From IMG/VR virus record IMGVR_UViG_3300036828_000399, positions 1 to 35,204 of that record: DNA of 35,204 bases. One strand, written 5' to 3'. This document shows, piece by piece, positions 5,666 to 35,204 of the stretch. Numbering within the stretch: position 1 is the first letter of the stretch; the number at the start of each line of letters is the position of its first letter. The DNA comes from a virus. Under the pieces are notes generated by a model that saw only the letters and a list, made by a program, of their open reading frames with translations, did no database searches and had not been told where the DNA came from. Position numbers and translations under genes: made by a program.

Positions 5666-8600
5666 ATGGCTGAACTAAAGTTTGTCATTCCTCAACATTT
5701 AAATGAACCTCTCCAAAAATTGTTGGAGCAGGTAAAGGAATTAACTACTCAAACTGATAAACTTGCTAAAGGTATGAAACAAGTAGTTAATCTTTCATTA
5801 CCAACTAAGCAACCATTTGATCACAGTAAAATTGTACATCAGTTTCATTCTTTTTCACAAAATCTGCGTAGATTTGAACAAGCAATTCAGAATTCAACTG
5901 AATTATTACTTCGGCCTTTGAGTGGTTCTACTAAGATTATGATACGGACTATGGACGTGACTAAAGTCCTTTCCCGGTTAGAAGGGATGGGGATGATGTC
6001 AATTCCTATTGCTGGTCGACTGTGGGTTGGAGGGATCGGTGTTATTGGAGGTATAGCTGTTATTGGAATGGCTGTATTTGAAGTAATGAAATTTTTGATT
6101 GAAAAGACATTTGCAATGGCGTCTCTCACAGTGAGAGACAGTGTTACGGCTGTTGGACTTGGAACTAGTATTGGTGCTTTACGGGCTTTTAGAATTACAT
6201 TTGGAGGTAGAATTCCTGGTGCTGAACAGACTTTAGCAAATGTCGCCGGTGCCCAAATAGATCCAAGTTCTATGTCTTATACAATTTTACGTGTTCTTAA
6301 AATTAAGTCTTTGATGCAAACGACTACTGGTACAGTAGACGCCATGATTGCGGCGGCACATCTTGTGAAATCATTACCATTAGGAGCATATGCATTAATT
6401 GCACAAAGAAGTGGCTTGACTACTGTATTTCCGATTGATCAATTACGTGCTCTTCGTGCAATGCCAGAAAAAGAATTACAAGAAATGAAGGCTAAACAAG
6501 TAGAGCGTGAAAAGAAATTCTTTATTCCTAAAGAAGCTATTGATGCTATGAGAGATCTTTTTAATGCAGGTCAGGATTTTTTAAATAAATCTGAATTTGC
6601 TTGGATGAAGGCAGCAACAACAGGACGACCTGATTCTTTTATAACTGGGAAATCTACATGGAGCCACAATAAATTCAAAGGTAAACAGAAATTTCATGCT
6701 GATCTTGTAAGTGCTACTGCTCGTCTTTCAAGTGCTTCGGCAGATTTCATAAAGTATTTCTTAGATCTACCAGTTACTCAACAATTGATAAAATGGCTTG
6801 AAAGAGCTTTGAGTGGATTAGCTAGATTATTTAGAAGAATGACTCATGCATTGTCTGGTACAGTCGGTAAAGAGTTTATTCGTTCAGCTTTGAAGACACC
6901 AGTTGGTCCTGGTATGCCAGCAAGGAAGTTTCCTGGGCATCCAGGAGTTAGTTTGCCATCTAGACCTGGGCTTAGACCTAGTCGTCCAGGAGTGAGTCCA
7001 ACATTTAGACCTGGAATTGGGCCTGGACGACGACTGGCTCCTAGTCAGGGTCCAGGTCCTCCCCCGGTTACTGCTCCTTCTACTAGTCCAGGTGCTCCAC
7101 CTCCTACTGTTCCTTCTACTGGTCCAGGTGCTCCACCTGCTCCACCTGCTTATGTTCCTGCTCGCCCAGGTGCTCCACCTGCTTACGCTCCTGCTCGCCC
7201 AGGTGCTCCGTTGCCTATTGGTCCTATTCGTCCAGGTGCTCCACCTGCTCGCCCTTCTGCTCCACCTGCTTATGTTCCTGCTCGCCCAGGTGCTCCGTCT
7301 CCTATTGGTCCTGCTCGCCCAGGTACTTCACCTCCTCCTGTTCGCCCTAGTGCTCCACCTGTTCGCCCTAGTGCTCCATCACGCCCTGAAGCTCCATCTC
7401 GTCCTAGTGTTCCACCTGTTCGCCCTAGTGCTCCACCTGCTTATGCTCCTGCTCGCCCAGGTTCTACTGATCCAATACCAGCATATACTGGTCCTGGTAC
7501 TGGTATAACTGGCCGAACTTCGATTGCAGCACTAGAAAATGATCCAAAAACACAGGCTGCTATAGAAAGATTTCATCAAGCATTTCCTAACGTCGCTAAT
7601 TATAAAACTCAGCTTTATAGTCTTGTTCAAGGTGAATCTGGTATGGGCCGAAATATGGTCCAGAGGAATCAATATGCTGGTTATTTTGCACTAGGATCAG
7701 ATGAAGCATATCGAAAAATGGGTTTGAGTAAGCAACAATTCGCAGCATTACCATTTGATCAACAATTAGATGCTTACACTAGATGGGCGAAACAAAATGA
7801 TCCTTCTGGAACACATATCAGGAATTTAGGATTATTTAATGCTGCGAGTGCTTTGAGTTGGCAGGGTAAGCCAGATGATACTGTAGTGTATCCGGCTGGA
7901 TCACGTGAGGCAAGAGCGAATGCAAGTACATGGGGAGCTAATAGTAATGCGGGTGGAGCAGTCACAATTGGTGGTATAAAAAGATATTATTCAAGAAATG
8001 ATCCAGCAACTTCAAGACAATTAAATGATGTGACTGCTGTAGCTCCTGCTGCTCCATCCCAACCATTTGGTCCAAGACAACCCTTTGATCCAGCCAAGCC
8101 TTTTGATCCATCTAGACCCGCTGCTCCTACTACTTCTACTGCTCCAACTGCACCGATAGGACCAGATCAAACAGGAGGAGGTGGAGGTAAATTTACTCAA
8201 AGTCAACAAGGTGCAGGTAGGTCTGGTCAAGTAAGCCCTCAATTAGAAAAACAACTTGGTGCTGTAGCTGATAGAACTGGAGTTAATATTGATACATTTT
8301 CTGGAGGTGAAGTTCCAGGAGGATTTCATTCTGGGTCTGGTCGTCATGAACATGGTGGTGCTGCTGACGTAACATTGTATACAACTAATCCAGATGGATC
8401 AAAACATTATTTAAATTTTAATGATCCAACAGATAGAGCTAAAATTCAACAAGTTATTGCAGAGTCAAGAAGACAAGGAATTACTGGAATTGGAATTGGT
8501 CCTGGATATATGGAAGGTCATGAAGGAACCGCAGTACATTTAGGAGGTGGTACAGAAAAAATATGGGGAGAAGGAGGGCATGAAATTAAGGCTCCTGGAT

Positions 8601-9640
8601 GGGCTAGACAGGCATTTGAGAATCCAGAAAAGTTTCCATCTACTAGTGGTACTCAGGCTGTTGCTCCAAAAACTCAACAACCTCAAGCATCTCCACAATG
8701 GCCAACTGGTGATTTACCTCCCATTAAATATGCTGGAGATCCATCTAAGTCTGCTGAGCCTGCTGAGCCTGCTGAGCCTATTCCAATGCCAATGTCAGAT
8801 CCAAGGGGTACAGCAGGAGATGAGTTGATCCCTGAGCATTTAAATCCAACGGCTCAGTTGGGTGCAGAAGTTACTAGAAAATATATTACTGAGTTGCCTG
8901 AAAAAGATAGGCAAGGACTTTATGGAGAAACTAGATGGGTTAGTGGAGAAGGACCTGGAAGATTATTTGAAGAAGGTCATCCAGCTATTGTATATAATCC
9001 AGAAGAACGATATCAAGATCCACTTGATGCTAAACAAACTATGAAGCATGAACTTGAACATGCTGGAGTTATGCAGTCTCTTCCTTATCAAGAACATCGG
9101 GATGAAAATAGAGAGTTTAAATTCGCTGGAAGTGAAGGTGGAGGTGAAGAATTAAGACAGCGGTTGTCTGATATAGCTAGAATAGAGGCTTATGGACCTG
9201 CTGCAATGAAAATACCGAGCTATCGAAAACAATTAAGTGATGCTAAAATTATGGTTGATAGACTAACAAAGTCTATTAGTGAAGCAATGCACATAACTCC
9301 AGATGAAGTAAGAGCAAGGGTTAAAGCATATCAAGCAGATATAGATCAAGCAGTTAAGAAGGCAGAGGCAGCACGACAGCAAAAATTAAATCCTACTGCA
9401 CCTACTTCAGCACAGGGGGCTCCAAAACCGGGTATCCCAGCACAGGGGGCTCCAAAACCTGGTGCTCCAACACAGACTAGGGCTGAAAAGATAGAGGCTG
9501 AACCAAAAGGAAAAGTAGATGCAGATACTCATGCACGTTGGCATCAGCATCGTAATCCGATAAAGATAATCAATAACTCTACTGATGTTGATCTGCATTG
9601 GGCTAATCAGAATTCTGAATTATCAACGGCTCCAATGTAA
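5666..9640 (+). CDS. Tape measure protein with candidate lysozyme-like, M15-like and HExxH modules
   Basis: This 1324-residue protein is the longest gene here and directly follows the chaperones. Tape measures set tail length and enter the cell envelope at ejection. Residues 1-90 are coiled-coil-like and about 118-150 are hydrophobic (GGIGVIGGIAVIGMAVF), a likely membrane segment. Residues about 415-610 are proline-rich repeats (RPGAPPAYVPA units). After these come three candidate enzyme modules. One at about 630-780 is lysozyme or transglycosylase-like, with catalytic candidate E657 in QGESGMG and an NQYAGYFALG segment. One at about 865-985 resembles M15 D-Ala-D-Ala peptidases (GRHEHGGAADV at 893-902, later AVHLGGG at 956-962). 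One at about 1080-1170 contains a zincin-type HELEH at 1128-1132. The C-terminus has more PGIPAQGAPKPG repeats. Module functions are inferred from motifs. Confidence 0.85.
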   Translation: MAELKFVIPQHLNEPLQKLLEQVKELTTQTDKLAKGMKQVVNLSLPTKQPFDHSKIVHQFHSFSQNLRRFEQAIQNSTELLLRPLSGSTKIMIRTMDVTKVLSRLEGMGMMSIPIAGRLWVGGIGVIGGIAVIGMAVFEVMKFLIEKTFAMASLTVRDSVTAVGLGTSIGALRAFRITFGGRIPGAEQTLANVAGAQIDPSSMSYTILRVLKIKSLMQTTTGTVDAMIAAAHLVKSLPLGAYALIAQRSGLTTVFPIDQLRALRAMPEKELQEMKAKQVEREKKFFIPKEAIDAMRDLFNAGQDFLNKSEFAWMKAATTGRPDSFITGKSTWSHNKFKGKQKFHADLVSATARLSSASADFIKYFLDLPVTQQLIKWLERALSGLARLFRRMTHALSGTVGKEFIRSALKTPVGPGMPARKFPGHPGVSLPSRPGLRPSRPGVSPTFRPGIGPGRRLAPSQGPGPPPVTAPSTSPGAPPPTVPSTGPGAPPAPPAYVPARPGAPPAYAPARPGAPLPIGPIRPGAPPARPSAPPAYVPARPGAPSPIGPARPGTSPPPVRPSAPPVRPSAPSRPEAPSRPSVPPVRPSAPPAYAPARPGSTDPIPAYTGPGTGITGRTSIAALENDPKTQAAIERFHQAFPNVANYKTQLYSLVQGESGMGRNMVQRNQYAGYFALGSDEAYRKMGLSKQQFAALPFDQQLDAYTRWAKQNDPSGTHIRNLGLFNAASALSWQGKPDDTVVYPAGSREARANASTWGANSNAGGAVTIGGIKRYYSRNDPATSRQLNDVTAVAPAAPSQPFGPRQPFDPAKPFDPSRPAAPTTSTAPTAPIGPDQTGGGGGKFTQSQQGAGRSGQVSPQLEKQLGAVADRTGVNIDTFSGGEVPGGFHSGSGRHEHGGAADVTLYTTNPDGSKHYLNFNDPTDRAKIQQVIAESRRQGITGIGIGPGYMEGHEGTAVHLGGGTEKIWGEGGHEIKAPGWARQAFENPEKFPSTSGTQAVAPKTQQPQASPQWPTGDLPPIKYAGDPSKSAEPAEPAEPIPMPMSDPRGTAGDELIPEHLNPTAQLGAEVTRKYITELPEKDRQGLYGETRWVSGEGPGRLFEEGHPAIVYNPEERYQDPLDAKQTMKHELEHAGVMQSLPYQEHRDENREFKFAGSEGGGEELRQRLSDIARIEAYGPAAMKIPSYRKQLSDAKIMVDRLTKSISEAMHITPDEVRARVKAYQADIDQAVKKAEAARQQKLNPTAPTSAQGAPKPGIPAQGAPKPGAPTQTRAEKIEAEPKGKVDADTHARWHQHRNPIKIINNSTDVDLHWANQNSELSTAPM
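6925..7470 (+). repeat. In-frame degenerate coding repeats (Pro/Gly/Ala/Arg-rich) inside the tape measure gene
   Basis: Short units such as CGCCCAGGTGCTCCACCTGC recur many times, coding for RPGAPPA, PARPGAP and RPSAPP blocks. All length changes keep the reading frame. The stretch separates the helical tail-length part from the candidate enzyme domains and probably forms a flexible linker. Tandem units like these expand and contract easily by slippage or recombination. Confidence 0.75.
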
Positions 9641-32703: not shown

Positions 32704-32729
32704 AACCCTCCTATATGTTACGAATTAGT

Positions 32730-33027
32730 GGTTAGCTCCATGCTTCTGGTTCACTCAAAGGCTACGGCTCGCTCCTCCCAATTGGTTCACTCATAGAATA
32801 TGGCTCACTCATTACAATTAGTTCACTCTCAACTGATGGCTCGCTCTTTACTTCATGGTTCCCTCGGCGGTTATGGCTTACTCTTGGCGGTTGGCTCACT
32901 CAGTTGGTTTGGCTTGCTCCCACTTCTAGGTTCACTTAACAGCTCTGGCTCGCTCGTACTTAATGGTTCACTAAAGGACGATGGCTCGCTCATTGGGGTT
33001 GGTTCACTCCAGGGGTCTGGCTTACTT
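32730..33027 (-). repeat. TIGR-like array 1 (17 repeats, 9-bp repeat / 9-bp spacer)
   Basis: On the + strand GGTTCACTC-type (A) and GGCTCGCTC-type (B) 9-mers alternate every 18 bp from 32730 to 33027, each pair separated by a different 9-base spacer. One spacer has 10 bases (32847-32856). Positions of clear A repeats are 32748, 32784, 32820, 32929 and 33001; clear B repeats are 32766, 32838, 32911, 32947 and 32983. Several are hybrids (GGCTCACTC at 32802 and 32893), so this copy is more decayed than array 3. The - strand, co-directional with tas, reads GAGTGAACC-N9-GAGCGAGCC. The repeat at 33019 contains the tas stop codon. Known TIGR arrays have two short spacers per 36-nt unit, which this matches. 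Confidence 0.85.
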
Positions 33028-33882
33028 CCACTTCTTCAATGCCGCCGCCAACTTGGGGAATACATCCTGGTTGGGTGGCGGTATGAAGTCGATATGCCCC
33101 ATATGCCCAATGACATATGGAACCGGTGGCAGTTCGCCCTTTGTGTCGAACCACCAACAAATTTGCAGATGTGACAGAAACATCTTAACTGCCCATCGCC
33201 TTGCGCGTGCATCAATTTGTGCGGGCGGCAAGTGTCCAGCGGTAAGATGCTTATAGGCTTCGGTAGTCTTGTTAAAGTTCTTTTCTGTCAGAATACGGGC
33301 GGCTGTTTCAGCCATACCACCACTGTCATTACGAGCAACCTCGTAGGCTTTACGAGTTTTGTACATTTGCCCGTACACGCAATCAGGATTACCCGAAAAT
33401 TTCATAAAAGACTGGCCGGTTTTCCAGCACAATGTCTTGAGCCCAGCATTCCATGGGCGCTTGGTCTTTGGTTCCCATTTTACTGTTGGGTCCAGTCCAG
33501 CAAATCTCCAGATTTGGCCAACCGTTCGACATATACTAATGTCGATATGGGCCATCATACCGGCAGAAATCACCGGTCCAATACCAACGATACTTTGCAT
33601 CCATTGTCCAATGCGCTTGGAAGATGCGTAGGTTTCCAAAACCTTTTTGATCTCATTTTCCAGTAGCTGACTATTACCGGCAAGCCAACTCACAATTTCA
33701 TGTGGTTCCTTATCGGCTTCGAGTGCCAGAACTTGGTTATGTGCTCGCTTGCGATCTTCTTGCATAATATAGTAATGGTCTACAAGAAACCGTGCTTCAG
33801 TTGTAGTCAAGGTTACAGCAGCCGCGCGCAAATCCTTGTGGAGCTTCTGTAACTGCTCAAATGCATTAACCGGGGTGCTCAT
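33022..33882 (-). CDS. tasA: Tas protein (Nop/IS110 C-terminal-like), nuclease-less
   Basis: I chose the ATG at 33882 (MSTPVNAFEQ); codons before it are read from array repeats. The 286-residue protein has a helical N-terminal part (1-92). A core at about 95-165 (SIVGIGPVISAGMMAHID, IWRFAGLDPTVKWEPKTK, LKTLCWKTGQSFMKF) matches the C-terminal domain of IS110/IS116 transposases (Transposase_20), a relative of the Nop domain of box C/D snoRNPs. A basic, conserved stretch follows (PPAQIDARARRWAVKMFLSH). There is no DEDD, RuvC or HNH part, so it fits the stand-alone TasA type rather than TasR or TasH. Tas proteins bind tigRNA and search DNA. The repeat arrays on both sides support the call. A decayed IS110 transposase is the alternative, but no insertion-sequence ends are seen and the frame is intact. 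The role of the nuclease-less type is uncertain. Confidence 0.8.
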   Translation of the reverse strand: MSTPVNAFEQLQKLHKDLRAAAVTLTTTEARFLVDHYYIMQEDRKRAHNQVLALEADKEPHEIVSWLAGNSQLLENEIKKVLETYASSKRIGQWMQSIVGIGPVISAGMMAHIDISICRTVGQIWRFAGLDPTVKWEPKTKRPWNAGLKTLCWKTGQSFMKFSGNPDCVYGQMYKTRKAYEVARNDSGGMAETAARILTEKNFNKTTEAYKHLTAGHLPPAQIDARARRWAVKMFLSHLQICWWFDTKGELPPVPYVIGHMGHIDFIPPPNQDVFPKLAAALKKWK

Positions 33883-33885
33883 TGG

Positions 33886-33966
33886 CGCTCGCTCCTTTGA
33901 CTTGGTTCGCTCATGGATATTGGCTCGCACGCTGATTTTGGTTCACTCCAGAAGTATGGCTCTAGT
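33886..33966 (-). repeat. TIGR-like array 2, short (5 repeats) before tas
   Basis: CGCTCGCTC (33886), GGTTCGCTC (33904), GGCTCGCAC (33922), GGTTCACTC (33940) and a decayed GGCTCTAGT (33958) follow at exactly 18 bp with spacers of 9 bases. On the - strand the first-listed repeat supplies the GAG of AAAGGAG, the ribosome binding site of tas. The last overlaps the stop of the secreted-protein gene. Confidence 0.8.
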
Positions 33967-34195
33967 TGCAATTCGTGTAACCAACTCCTGCAATGTATCG
34001 AGTTACACAGTGGGAAACAGTCGGAGGCGGTGGCAATGGTTGGACTACTCCCGGTGTGAACGGTGCCGGTATGCGTGGTGTATTATTCTGGCACTCTGTG
34101 TATACAGTACCAGCGATGTTTCTTTGCACGCAGTTCGTTTGAGCGAAAGCTGCACTAGGTATAAATAGTACAGCAGTTATGATAAGATACTTCAT
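33962..34195 (-). CDS. Small secreted protein inside the array locus
   Basis: I chose the ATG at 34195, with AGGAAGG about 8-10 bases upstream. The 77-residue product starts with a Sec signal peptide (MKYLIITAVLFIPSAAFA, likely cut after AFA). The mature part has two copies of a cysteine motif: CVQRNIAGTVYTEC and CVTRYIAGVGYTNC. A proline-rich spacer (PGVVQPLPPPP) joins them. Each copy may close a disulfide loop in the periplasm. Its place between two parts of the array is odd for an exported protein. Possible roles are superinfection exclusion or envelope binding (inference); no family recognised. Confidence 0.6.
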   Translation of the reverse strand: MKYLIITAVLFIPSAAFAQTNCVQRNIAGTVYTECQNNTPRIPAPFTPGVVQPLPPPPTVSHCVTRYIAGVGYTNCN

Positions 34196-34278
34196 TGTAG
34201 CCCCTTCCTGGTGGTGTGTTGCTCTTTGGCTGTGGTTCACTCTTCACGGGTGGCTTGTTCTACGCCATACACACTTTT

Positions 34279-34307
34279 ACCATAGCTTGCTATTTACAGA
34301 ATGTAAA
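34279..34307 (-). promoter_or_regulatory. Candidate promoter inside the faded part of array 3
   Basis: The - strand reads TTTACA, 17 bases, TATGGT: 5 of 6 and 4 of 6 matches with ideal spacing. The -35 box is one arm of a dyad TTTACA-TTC-TGTAAA. It faces the secreted-protein gene, array 2, tas and array 1, and sits exactly where the repeat pattern breaks. Confidence 0.4.
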
Positions 34308-34631
34308 GGTAATTGCTTGCTGACCTTGGTTCACTTCATGAAACTGGCTCGCTCTGCTTTGGTGGTTCACTTTTCAACTTAGGCTCGCTCTGTAGTTATG
34401 GTTCACTCTTTCTCTTTGGCTCGCTCACACATTCTGGTTCACTTAGTGCGTGGCTCGCTTAAGCACTATGGTTCACTCGAGCCAGATGGCTCGCTTCTCG
34501 GTTGAGGTTCACTCCCCTCACGTGGCTCGCTCCATCACCATGGTTCACTTGCTAATAATGGCTCGCTCCCATACCTTGGTTCACTCCGTCAAGATGGCTC
34601 GCTCTAGGCACTAGGTTCACACGTTCATCTT

Positions 34632-34748
34632 GGCTCGCTCTGTGACTGTGGTTCACTCAAGCTCATAGGCTTGCTCGCACCACTTGGTTCCCTCCGCTAC
34701 ATAGGCTCGCTCTGTGACTGTGGTTCACTCAAGCTCATAGGCTTGCTC
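34632..34748 (-). repeat. Duplicated array unit (34632-34676 and 34704-34748)
   Basis: The 45 bases from the B repeat at 34632 through spacers TGTGACTGT and AAGCTCATA to the variant repeat GGCTTGCTC recur exactly at 34704. The copies lie 72 bp, two full 36-bp units, apart. This shows array growth by unit duplication, including the variant B repeat. Confidence 0.85.
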
Positions 34749-35204
34749 TGGTACTTTGGTTCACTTGCTGGCCATGGCTCGTTCGTTGGTGGTGGTTCAC
34801 TGAGCTATTCTGACTTGCTCGTCCTTTCTGGTTCACTCGTTCTTTGTGGCTTGCTCTAACGCTTTGGCTCACTTATCAATCAAGGCTAGCTCTGTGATGA
34901 TGGTTCACTTATCCGCAGTGGCTCGCTCTCATTTTTTGGTTCACTCTGGAAAAATGGCTCGCTCCCGTTGTCTGGTTCACTTAGACATGATGGCTCGCAC
35001 ATTTCGGATGGTTCACTTACGGATAAAGGTTCGCTACCGCACTGTGGTTCACTCCCCGGTCATAGGCTCGCTCATGGTGCGTGGTTCACTTACTGAGTGT
35101 GGCTCGCTTCTTACAGTTGGTTCACTCGCACAGTCTGGCTCGCTCACGGATTTTGATTCACTCCATATTGGTGGCTCGCTCGTTGGCCTTGGTTCACTTC
35201 CGAT

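What the first reader, a model, noticed from the sequence alone, without database searches (positions are those of the whole stretch)
32730..35204. TIGR-Tas locus: 9-bp alternating repeats, 9-bp spacers and a Nop/IS110-like protein in a phage
About 74 repeat positions of 9 bp alternate between two forms, with unique 9-base spacers, giving an 18-bp period and a 36-bp unit. A Transposase_20/Nop-like protein is encoded between the arrays. This is the layout I recall for TIGR-Tas (tandem interspaced guide RNA, reported in 2025), in which 36-nt RNAs carry two 9-nt guides and a Tas protein is kin to box C/D snoRNPs and IS110 transposases. The match covers spacer length, alternation, unit size and protein family. 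It appears in a myovirus next to replication genes.
Basis: partly seen in the sequence, partly recalled or inferred. Interest (0 to 1): 0.97.

Follow-up and report, generated by a model that had tools for sequence, protein, structure and literature searches.

The report
Phage TIGR-TasA RNA-guide locus
A tailed phage carries a TIGR-Tas system, a recently described CRISPR-like RNA-guide system with paired short guides and a nuclease-less Nop-domain protein; it is a new member of a known kind, and comparing about 75 related arrays shows that the two guides of each unit are inherited together, which bears on the open question of how these arrays change.

Summary
On the minus strand, window 32729-35198 carries about 71 alternating repeats (gAGCGAGCCA / gAGTGAACCA) at an 18-nt step. 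The array is in four blocks, interrupted by a 77-aa ORF and by a 286-aa gene (33022-33882, -), and runs off the contig end. The 286-aa protein is a Tas protein: NCBIfam TIGR_Tas_endo scores 184.5 bits (cut-off 100), the profile matches TasR at 3.6e-22 and TasH at 8e-14, and all 11 Foldseek PDB hits with E<=0.001 are TasH or TasR, with IS110 enzymes weaker. It has no nuclease domain, so it is a TasA. The kind is known (Faure et al. 2025, PMC12045711); this is a new member. Relatives added something: at least 357 stretches in viral contigs encode relatives, and 89 parsed loci have such arrays, nearly all touching tas. Across 75 non-redundant arrays, spacer A keeps its partner B in 199/200 comparisons, but B keeps the next unit's A in only 131/231. 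The 36-nt dual-spacer unit is therefore the inherited module, gained, lost and rearranged at the edge repeat. I found no natural target: matches equal shuffled pairings. Transcription, processing and DNA binding are inferred, not shown.

The parts
34327..35198 (-). Upstream TIGR array: 49 alternating 10-nt repeats (GAGCGAGCCA edge-type / GAGTGAACCA loop-type) with 8-nt spacers, about 24 dual-spacer units; continues off the contig end
34641..34676 (-). One copy of a duplicated 36-nt unit (spacers ATGAGCTT and CAGTCACA); the other copy is at 34713-34748, 72 nt away
   Evidence: tandem repeat of period 72
34713..34748 (-). Other copy of the duplicated 36-nt unit
34233..34321 (-). Decayed repeats between the upstream array and the small ORF
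   Evidence: 2-mismatch repeats at 34313, 34283, 34251 and an exact one at 34233
33962..34195 (-). Small ORF (77 aa, signal-peptide-like N terminus MKYLIITAVLFIPSAAFAQ) lying inside the array; no confident family
33885..33965 (-). Mini-array of 5 repeats between the small ORF and tas; its last repeat (GGAGCGAGCGCCA) contains the tas ribosome-binding site
33022..33882 (-). tasA: 286-aa Nop-domain Tas protein without a nuclease domain
32729..33026 (-). Downstream TIGR array: 17 repeats, 8 units; the first repeat overlaps the tas stop codon; the next gene (32703, -) starts about 25 nt after the last repeat with no terminator between

Best explanation
This is a TIGR-TasA system in a contractile-tailed phage. 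Array and tas lie on one strand with no gap and probably on one transcript (inferred from adjacency; no terminator found). By homology with the characterised systems, the precursor RNA is cut in the edge repeats (GAGCGAGCCA) into about 36-nt tigRNAs: half-edge, spacer A, loop repeat (GAGTGAACCA), spacer B, half-edge. A Tas dimer holds one tigRNA by the two box C/D-like repeats, and spacers A and B pair with opposite strands of adjacent 8-9-nt DNA sites. Having no nuclease, it would bind and bend its target and act by blocking (transcription or replication of a competing element, or host genes) rather than by cutting. The array changes by gain, loss and rearrangement of whole dual-spacer units with break points in edge repeats. 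Shown here: array structure, protein family and fold, adjacency, repeat covariation, unit-wise inheritance in relatives. Inferred: transcription, processing, DNA binding, blocking as the effect. Unknown: the natural target.
For: Protein: NCBIfam TIGR_Tas_endo 184.5 bits, cut-off 100; phmmer to TasR 9MTY 1.5e-12; profile to TasR 3.6e-22, TasH 8.4e-14, IS621 only 4.7e-4; Foldseek top 11 hits all TasH/TasR. No HNH/RuvC match; helical from residue 7. Array. Family: at least 357 relatives in viral contigs and 25 loci in genomes; of 89 loci with parsed arrays, 81 have the array downstream of tas, most often starting 11-12 nt after the stop. Covariation of repeat columns 3 and 8 (G-C 1053, A-U 420, G-U 215, U-A 71 in edge-type repeats; z 6.9) and identical last base in edge and loop consensus in 88 of 88 cases (A/A 80, G/G 5, C/C 3), as expected if both repeats bind a symmetric dimer. 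Unit inheritance: A-B adjacency kept 199/200 vs B-A 131/231 in related pairs, 98/114 vs 14/127 in distant pairs (Fisher p 1e-31 and 3e-34, not corrected for shared ancestry); 40 of 52 pure indels are whole units in the same phase.
Against: No natural target found: matches of 2330 spacer pairs in 1.75 Mb of related phage DNA equal shuffled pairings, also for the window's own pairs. No terminator after the downstream array, unlike the typical published layout. About a quarter of window repeats are imperfect and one stretch is decayed, so not all units need be active. No expression data. Which window repeat is the edge is inferred from relatives and from the one duplicated unit.
Confidence: 0.88

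Rival explanations
1. The guides address RNA, not DNA: TasA with tigRNA acts like a bacterial box C/D RNP, pairing with host or phage transcripts through its two short spacers.
For: Nop proteins of box C/D snoRNPs do this; this Tas has no nuclease; no DNA target was found.
Against: The closest characterised relatives, TasR and TasH, bind and cut dsDNA, and TasR did not cut RNA (PMC12045711). A partner corresponding to fibrillarin or L7 was not seen next to tas.
Confidence: 0.07
2. An RNA-guided aid to phage DNA processing (integration, packaging or replication control of its own genome), using the sharp DNA bend, rather than an inter-element weapon.
For: The TIGR-Tas authors propose this for TasA; PHROGs class the protein under 'integration and excision' (phrog_4285, 2.1e-45); the locus lies in the same strand block as replication genes.
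Against: The PHROG label is a transposase annotation by homology. Spacer pairs of the window do not match its own genome above chance. High turnover of units fits changing targets better than fixed self sites.
Confidence: 0.15
3. An IS110-family transposase gene beside unrelated tandem repeats.
For: Weak Pfam Transposase_20 match (20.6 bits, below cut-off 21.3) and NCBIfam IS110 at 23.4 bits (cut-off 140).
Against: Tas models and structures score far higher; no DEDD catalytic domain found; the same kind of array sits next to relatives of this gene in 89 parsed loci.
Confidence: 0.01
4. A coding repeat: the 36-bp unit is 12 codons and the + strand reads as GSL-rich peptides.
For: Open frames of 62-124 aa run through the array on the + strand.
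Against: Frames do not span the array, single-base indels break the phase in several places, spacers are random-like, and the Tas-adjacent layout recurs across phages.
Confidence: 0.01

Closest known systems
TIGR-TasA, dual-repeat type (Faure et al. 2025, PMC12045711; example FpTIGR of Flavonifractor plautii)
   Same: Solo Nop-domain protein next to two alternating short repeats with two short spacers per 36-nt unit; found in tailed phages.
   Different: Array longer than the usual 5-15 units (more than 30, truncated by the contig end); tas and a small ORF sit inside the array; no terminator after it; effective spacer 8 nt plus a preferred G/A.
TIGR-TasH of Salicola phage CGphi29 (PDB 21KL, 9VZX and others)
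   Same: Phage origin, homologous Nop domain (tblastn 4e-3; profile 8e-14; Foldseek 2e-6), 16 variable guide bases per tigRNA as reported for SpTIGR.
   Different: TasH has an N-terminal HNH nuclease; this protein does not. Repeat sequences were not compared.
TIGR-TasR (PDB 9MTY)
   Same: Best sequence match among solved structures; repeats ending in CCA (box C) that covary between edge and loop.
   Different: No RuvC domain here; repeats start with GAG instead of UG.
IS110-family RNA-guided recombinases (IS621, ISCro4)
   Same: Distant Nop-like RNA-binding region.
   Different: No DEDD catalytic domain found here, no bridge RNA, and an array of guides.
CRISPR-Cas
   Same: Array of repeats and variable spacers with an RNA-guided protein.
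   Different: Repeats of 9-10 bp instead of 25-36, spacers of 8-9 nt, two alternating repeats; no cas gene was recognised among the window genes that I scanned.

Membership tests
TIGR-Tas | Nop-domain protein of the Tas family | tested here: met
   NCBIfam NF052498 184.5 bits vs cut-off 100; Foldseek top hits TasH/TasR
TIGR-Tas | Two distinct alternating repeats of 8-12 nt interspaced by about 9-nt spacers, 36-nt unit, adjacent to tas | tested here: met
TIGR-Tas | Box C/D-like motifs that covary between edge and loop repeats | tested here: met
   Columns 3-8 covary (z 6.9) and the last repeat base is the same in edge and loop consensus in all 88 cases
TIGR-Tas | Dual-spacer unit is the functional guide | tested here: met
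   Evolutionary evidence only: A-B linkage 199/200 vs B-A 131/231
[quoted passage not shown]
   5' end is off the contig; no terminator on the minus strand after 32729
TIGR-Tas | Array RNA processed to 36-nt tigRNA bound by Tas | not testable with these tools
   Needs small-RNA sequencing
TIGR-Tas | tigRNA-directed binding of both DNA strands | not testable with these tools
   Needs biochemistry; target search was negative
TasA subtype | Solo Nop domain, no HNH or RuvC nuclease | tested here: met
   No nuclease match; 286 aa vs 331 (TasR) and 354 (TasH)
IS110 transposase | N-terminal DEDD RuvC-like catalytic domain and bridge RNA | tested here: not met
   Only the Nop-like part aligns; IS110 model far below cut-off
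CRISPR-Cas | 25-36 nt repeats, cas genes | tested here: not met
   Repeat length; no cas gene among the families found in the scanned window proteins; not every window ORF was scanned

The most novel reading that the evidence does not exclude
TIGR arrays evolve by insertion, deletion and exchange of complete dual-spacer units, with break points in the edge repeat, between phages and at internal positions, so there is a unit-level route of array growth (recombination or an unknown adaptation step acting on edge repeats) although no adaptation genes are present.
Probability: 0.5. Interest if true: 0.75.

Novelty: new member of a known kind. Interest (0 to 1): 0.5.

Why it matters
TIGR-Tas systems were described in 2025, and their natural targets, the role of nuclease-less TasA and the way arrays gain spacers are stated open questions (PMC12045711). 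This locus is an intact phage TasA system with a long array, and its relatives form sets of closely related phages with partly shared arrays. Those sets show, from natural variation alone, that the two spacers on either side of the loop repeat are inherited as one module. That supports the paired-guide model independently of heterologous expression, and gives a direct way to study array turnover and to pick units, shared by different phages, whose targets should be findable.

Tried and rejected
(1) Targets: A.rcB, rcB.A, A.B and B.A orders with gaps 0-4, in the window, its relatives and 1.75 Mb of TIGR-phage DNA, against shuffled pairings: no excess. (2) One unit shared by six different arrays (GTGAGTAC/TTGAAAGT) searched exactly in all IMG/VR contigs: 25 stretches in the expected order vs 18 in the reversed order, not one homologous gene. 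(3) Spacer position profile for a seed: fewest changes at position 4, but p 0.045 and clusters contain chance matches, so not used. (4) Rfam: nothing. (5) Close-relative search with the single protein found nothing; the repeat pattern and then an alignment were needed. (6) Contig G001 matched the repeat pattern but has constant 'spacers' and no Tas: a chance tandem repeat, useful as a negative control. (7) IS110, coding-repeat and CRISPR readings rejected. (8) My parser labelled edge and loop in opposite ways in the two window arrays because both window repeats resemble edge repeats of relatives; the window shares no unit with other arrays, so this does not affect the linkage counts.

Full report
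What is there. The window is a whole IMG/VR-type virus record of 35,204 bases. Read on the minus strand, two 10-nt repeats, GAGCGAGCCA and GAGTGAACCA, alternate every 18 nt with variable 8-nt stretches between them. I count 71 chained repeats in four blocks (32729-33026, 33885-33965, 34327-34443, 34451-35198), plus a few decayed ones; the last block runs to the contig end. Ten first-order Markov randomisations of the region give 0-6 repeat-like sites where the region has 65. All spacers differ except one complete 36-nt unit that occurs twice, 72 nt apart.

The gene inside the array (33022-33882, minus) encodes 286 aa. Its start codon follows a repeat that also supplies the ribosome-binding site (AAAGGAGCGAGCGCCA-ATG), and its stop codon lies inside the first downstream repeat. 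A second small ORF (77 aa, signal-peptide-like) also lies inside the array. The phage has tail sheath and baseplate wedge genes and a family A DNA polymerase; its closest named phages are distant (polymerase 35%, sheath 36% identity).

What the protein is. Pfam gives only a sub-threshold IS110 match, but NCBIfam's TIGR-Tas model scores 184.5 bits against a cut-off of 100, and the IS110 model 23.4 against 140. In the PDB the profile finds TasR (9MTY, 3.6e-22) and TasH (8e-14) before IS621 (5e-4); 9MTY is the published TasR structure. The AlphaFold2 model (pLDDT 83.9, pTM 0.81) has TasH and TasR as its 11 best structural matches, followed by ISCro4 and IS621. There is no nuclease domain, so it is the TasA type. 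The NCBIfam name 'endonuclease' should not be taken literally for it.

Relatives. Searching IMG/VR for the repeat pattern alone returned 8 contigs, 7 of which encode a Tas protein 46-84% identical. An alignment-based search then found at least 357 encoding stretches in viral contigs and 25 loci in bacterial genomes. Of these and the earlier contigs, 89 loci have parsable arrays; 81 have the array downstream of tas, most often 11-12 nt after the stop codon, and 24 upstream. The closest relative (84% identity, contig IMGVR_UViG_3300036791_001309) shares tas and repeats with the window but no spacers above chance and no other gene by tblastn, although both contigs hold 18 kb or more downstream of tas. 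The tas-array cassette thus sits in different phage backgrounds.

Repeat structure. Across loci, repeat columns 3 and 8 covary (G-C, A-U, G-U, U-A; z 6.9 in the edge-type repeat), and the last base of the edge and loop consensus is the same in all 88 cases counted (A/A 80, G/G 5, C/C 3). Loci include near-duplicates, so these counts overstate independence. The pattern agrees with the published statement that box motifs covary between edge and loop repeats.

How arrays change. Several groups of related phages share part of their arrays. In 75 non-redundant arrays, if two arrays share a spacer that follows the edge-type repeat (A), its partner across the loop-type repeat (B) is also shared in 199 of 200 comparisons; if they share a B, the next A across the edge repeat is shared in 131 of 231. 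For pairs of arrays with few spacers in common the figures are 98/114 and 14/127 (Fisher p about 1e-31 and 3e-34, not corrected for shared ancestry). By distinct spacer, 100 of 110 A spacers have one partner, but only 38 of 129 B spacers. Of 52 pure insertions or deletions between related arrays, 40 are whole units in this one phase and only 2 are even-numbered in the other phase. Repeats of the two types are about equally uniform within an array (probability that two are identical 0.21 and 0.16), so homology alone does not explain why breaks fall in one type. Matched spacers diverge at about the rate of the tas gene. I conclude that the 36-nt unit with its two spacers is the inherited module, as the paired-guide model requires, and that the edge repeat is where units are joined. 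The paper names array expansion as unexplained; I found no open-access paper that reports this comparison, but most subscription papers are not held.

Targets. I looked for DNA sites matching A and B in the four possible orders with gaps of 0-4 nt, in the window, in related contigs and in 1.75 Mb of TIGR-phage DNA. Counts equal those of shuffled pairings. A unit shared by six arrays gave 25 exact sites in all IMG/VR in the order expected from the published geometry and 18 in the reversed order, without a common gene. The order A.rcB is my derivation from the stated 8-nt 3' overhang and C-5 rule; the paper's text gives two conflicting phrases, so both orders were tested. The natural target is therefore still unknown; it may lie in hosts or in elements outside this pool.

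Possible self-regulation. In 14 of 20 distinct loci with an array just upstream of tas, a GAGCG or GAGAG motif, the start of a repeat, lies in the last 24 nt before the start codon; in the other loci this is 7 of 42 (the window itself was counted in the second group because its 5-repeat block was below the parser's limit). If the final edge repeat is cut during tigRNA maturation, tas translation would drop. This is an idea, not a result.

Verdict. The system is a new member of a known kind; the family comparison adds evidence on the unit of inheritance. Transcription, processing, DNA binding and biological role remain unshown.

Noticed in passing
window 33870-33930: The tas ribosome-binding site is made of the last TIGR repeat; the same arrangement recurs in many relatives with upstream arrays (14/20 vs 7/42), suggesting feedback of RNA processing on tas translation.
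   Followed up: partly
window 33962-34195 (-): 77-aa ORF with a signal-peptide-like start and two similar cysteine-containing segments (NCVQRNIAGTVYTECQ / SHCVTRYIAGVGYTNCN) inside the array; no family match.
   Followed up: partly
L050 / contig IMGVR_UViG_3300036791_001309: At least 124 TIGR repeats in one locus (about 60 units), far above the published usual range of 5-15; the same sample holds two more TIGR contigs (L052, L058).
   Followed up: no
L094 and L107: TIGR loci with a 38-nt period and GAGAGAACCG / GAGCGTCAGC-like repeats, while L137 has 35 and L139 has 34: unit length varies within the family.
   Followed up: no
L009, Microcystis phage Mvi-JY20 21367-22092: A weak tas-like match (E 8e-3) in a cultured cyanophage next to a terminase; not checked for an array.
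   Followed up: no
L129, L135: TIGR-Tas loci in bacterial assemblies (Halomonas sp. NO4, Acidobacteriaceae bacterium KBS 96), which could serve as culturable test systems with a known host genome.
   Followed up: no
window 5666-9640 (+): Large 1324-aa protein with long proline-rich repeats (GAPPAYAPARP) inside the tail gene block.
   Followed up: no
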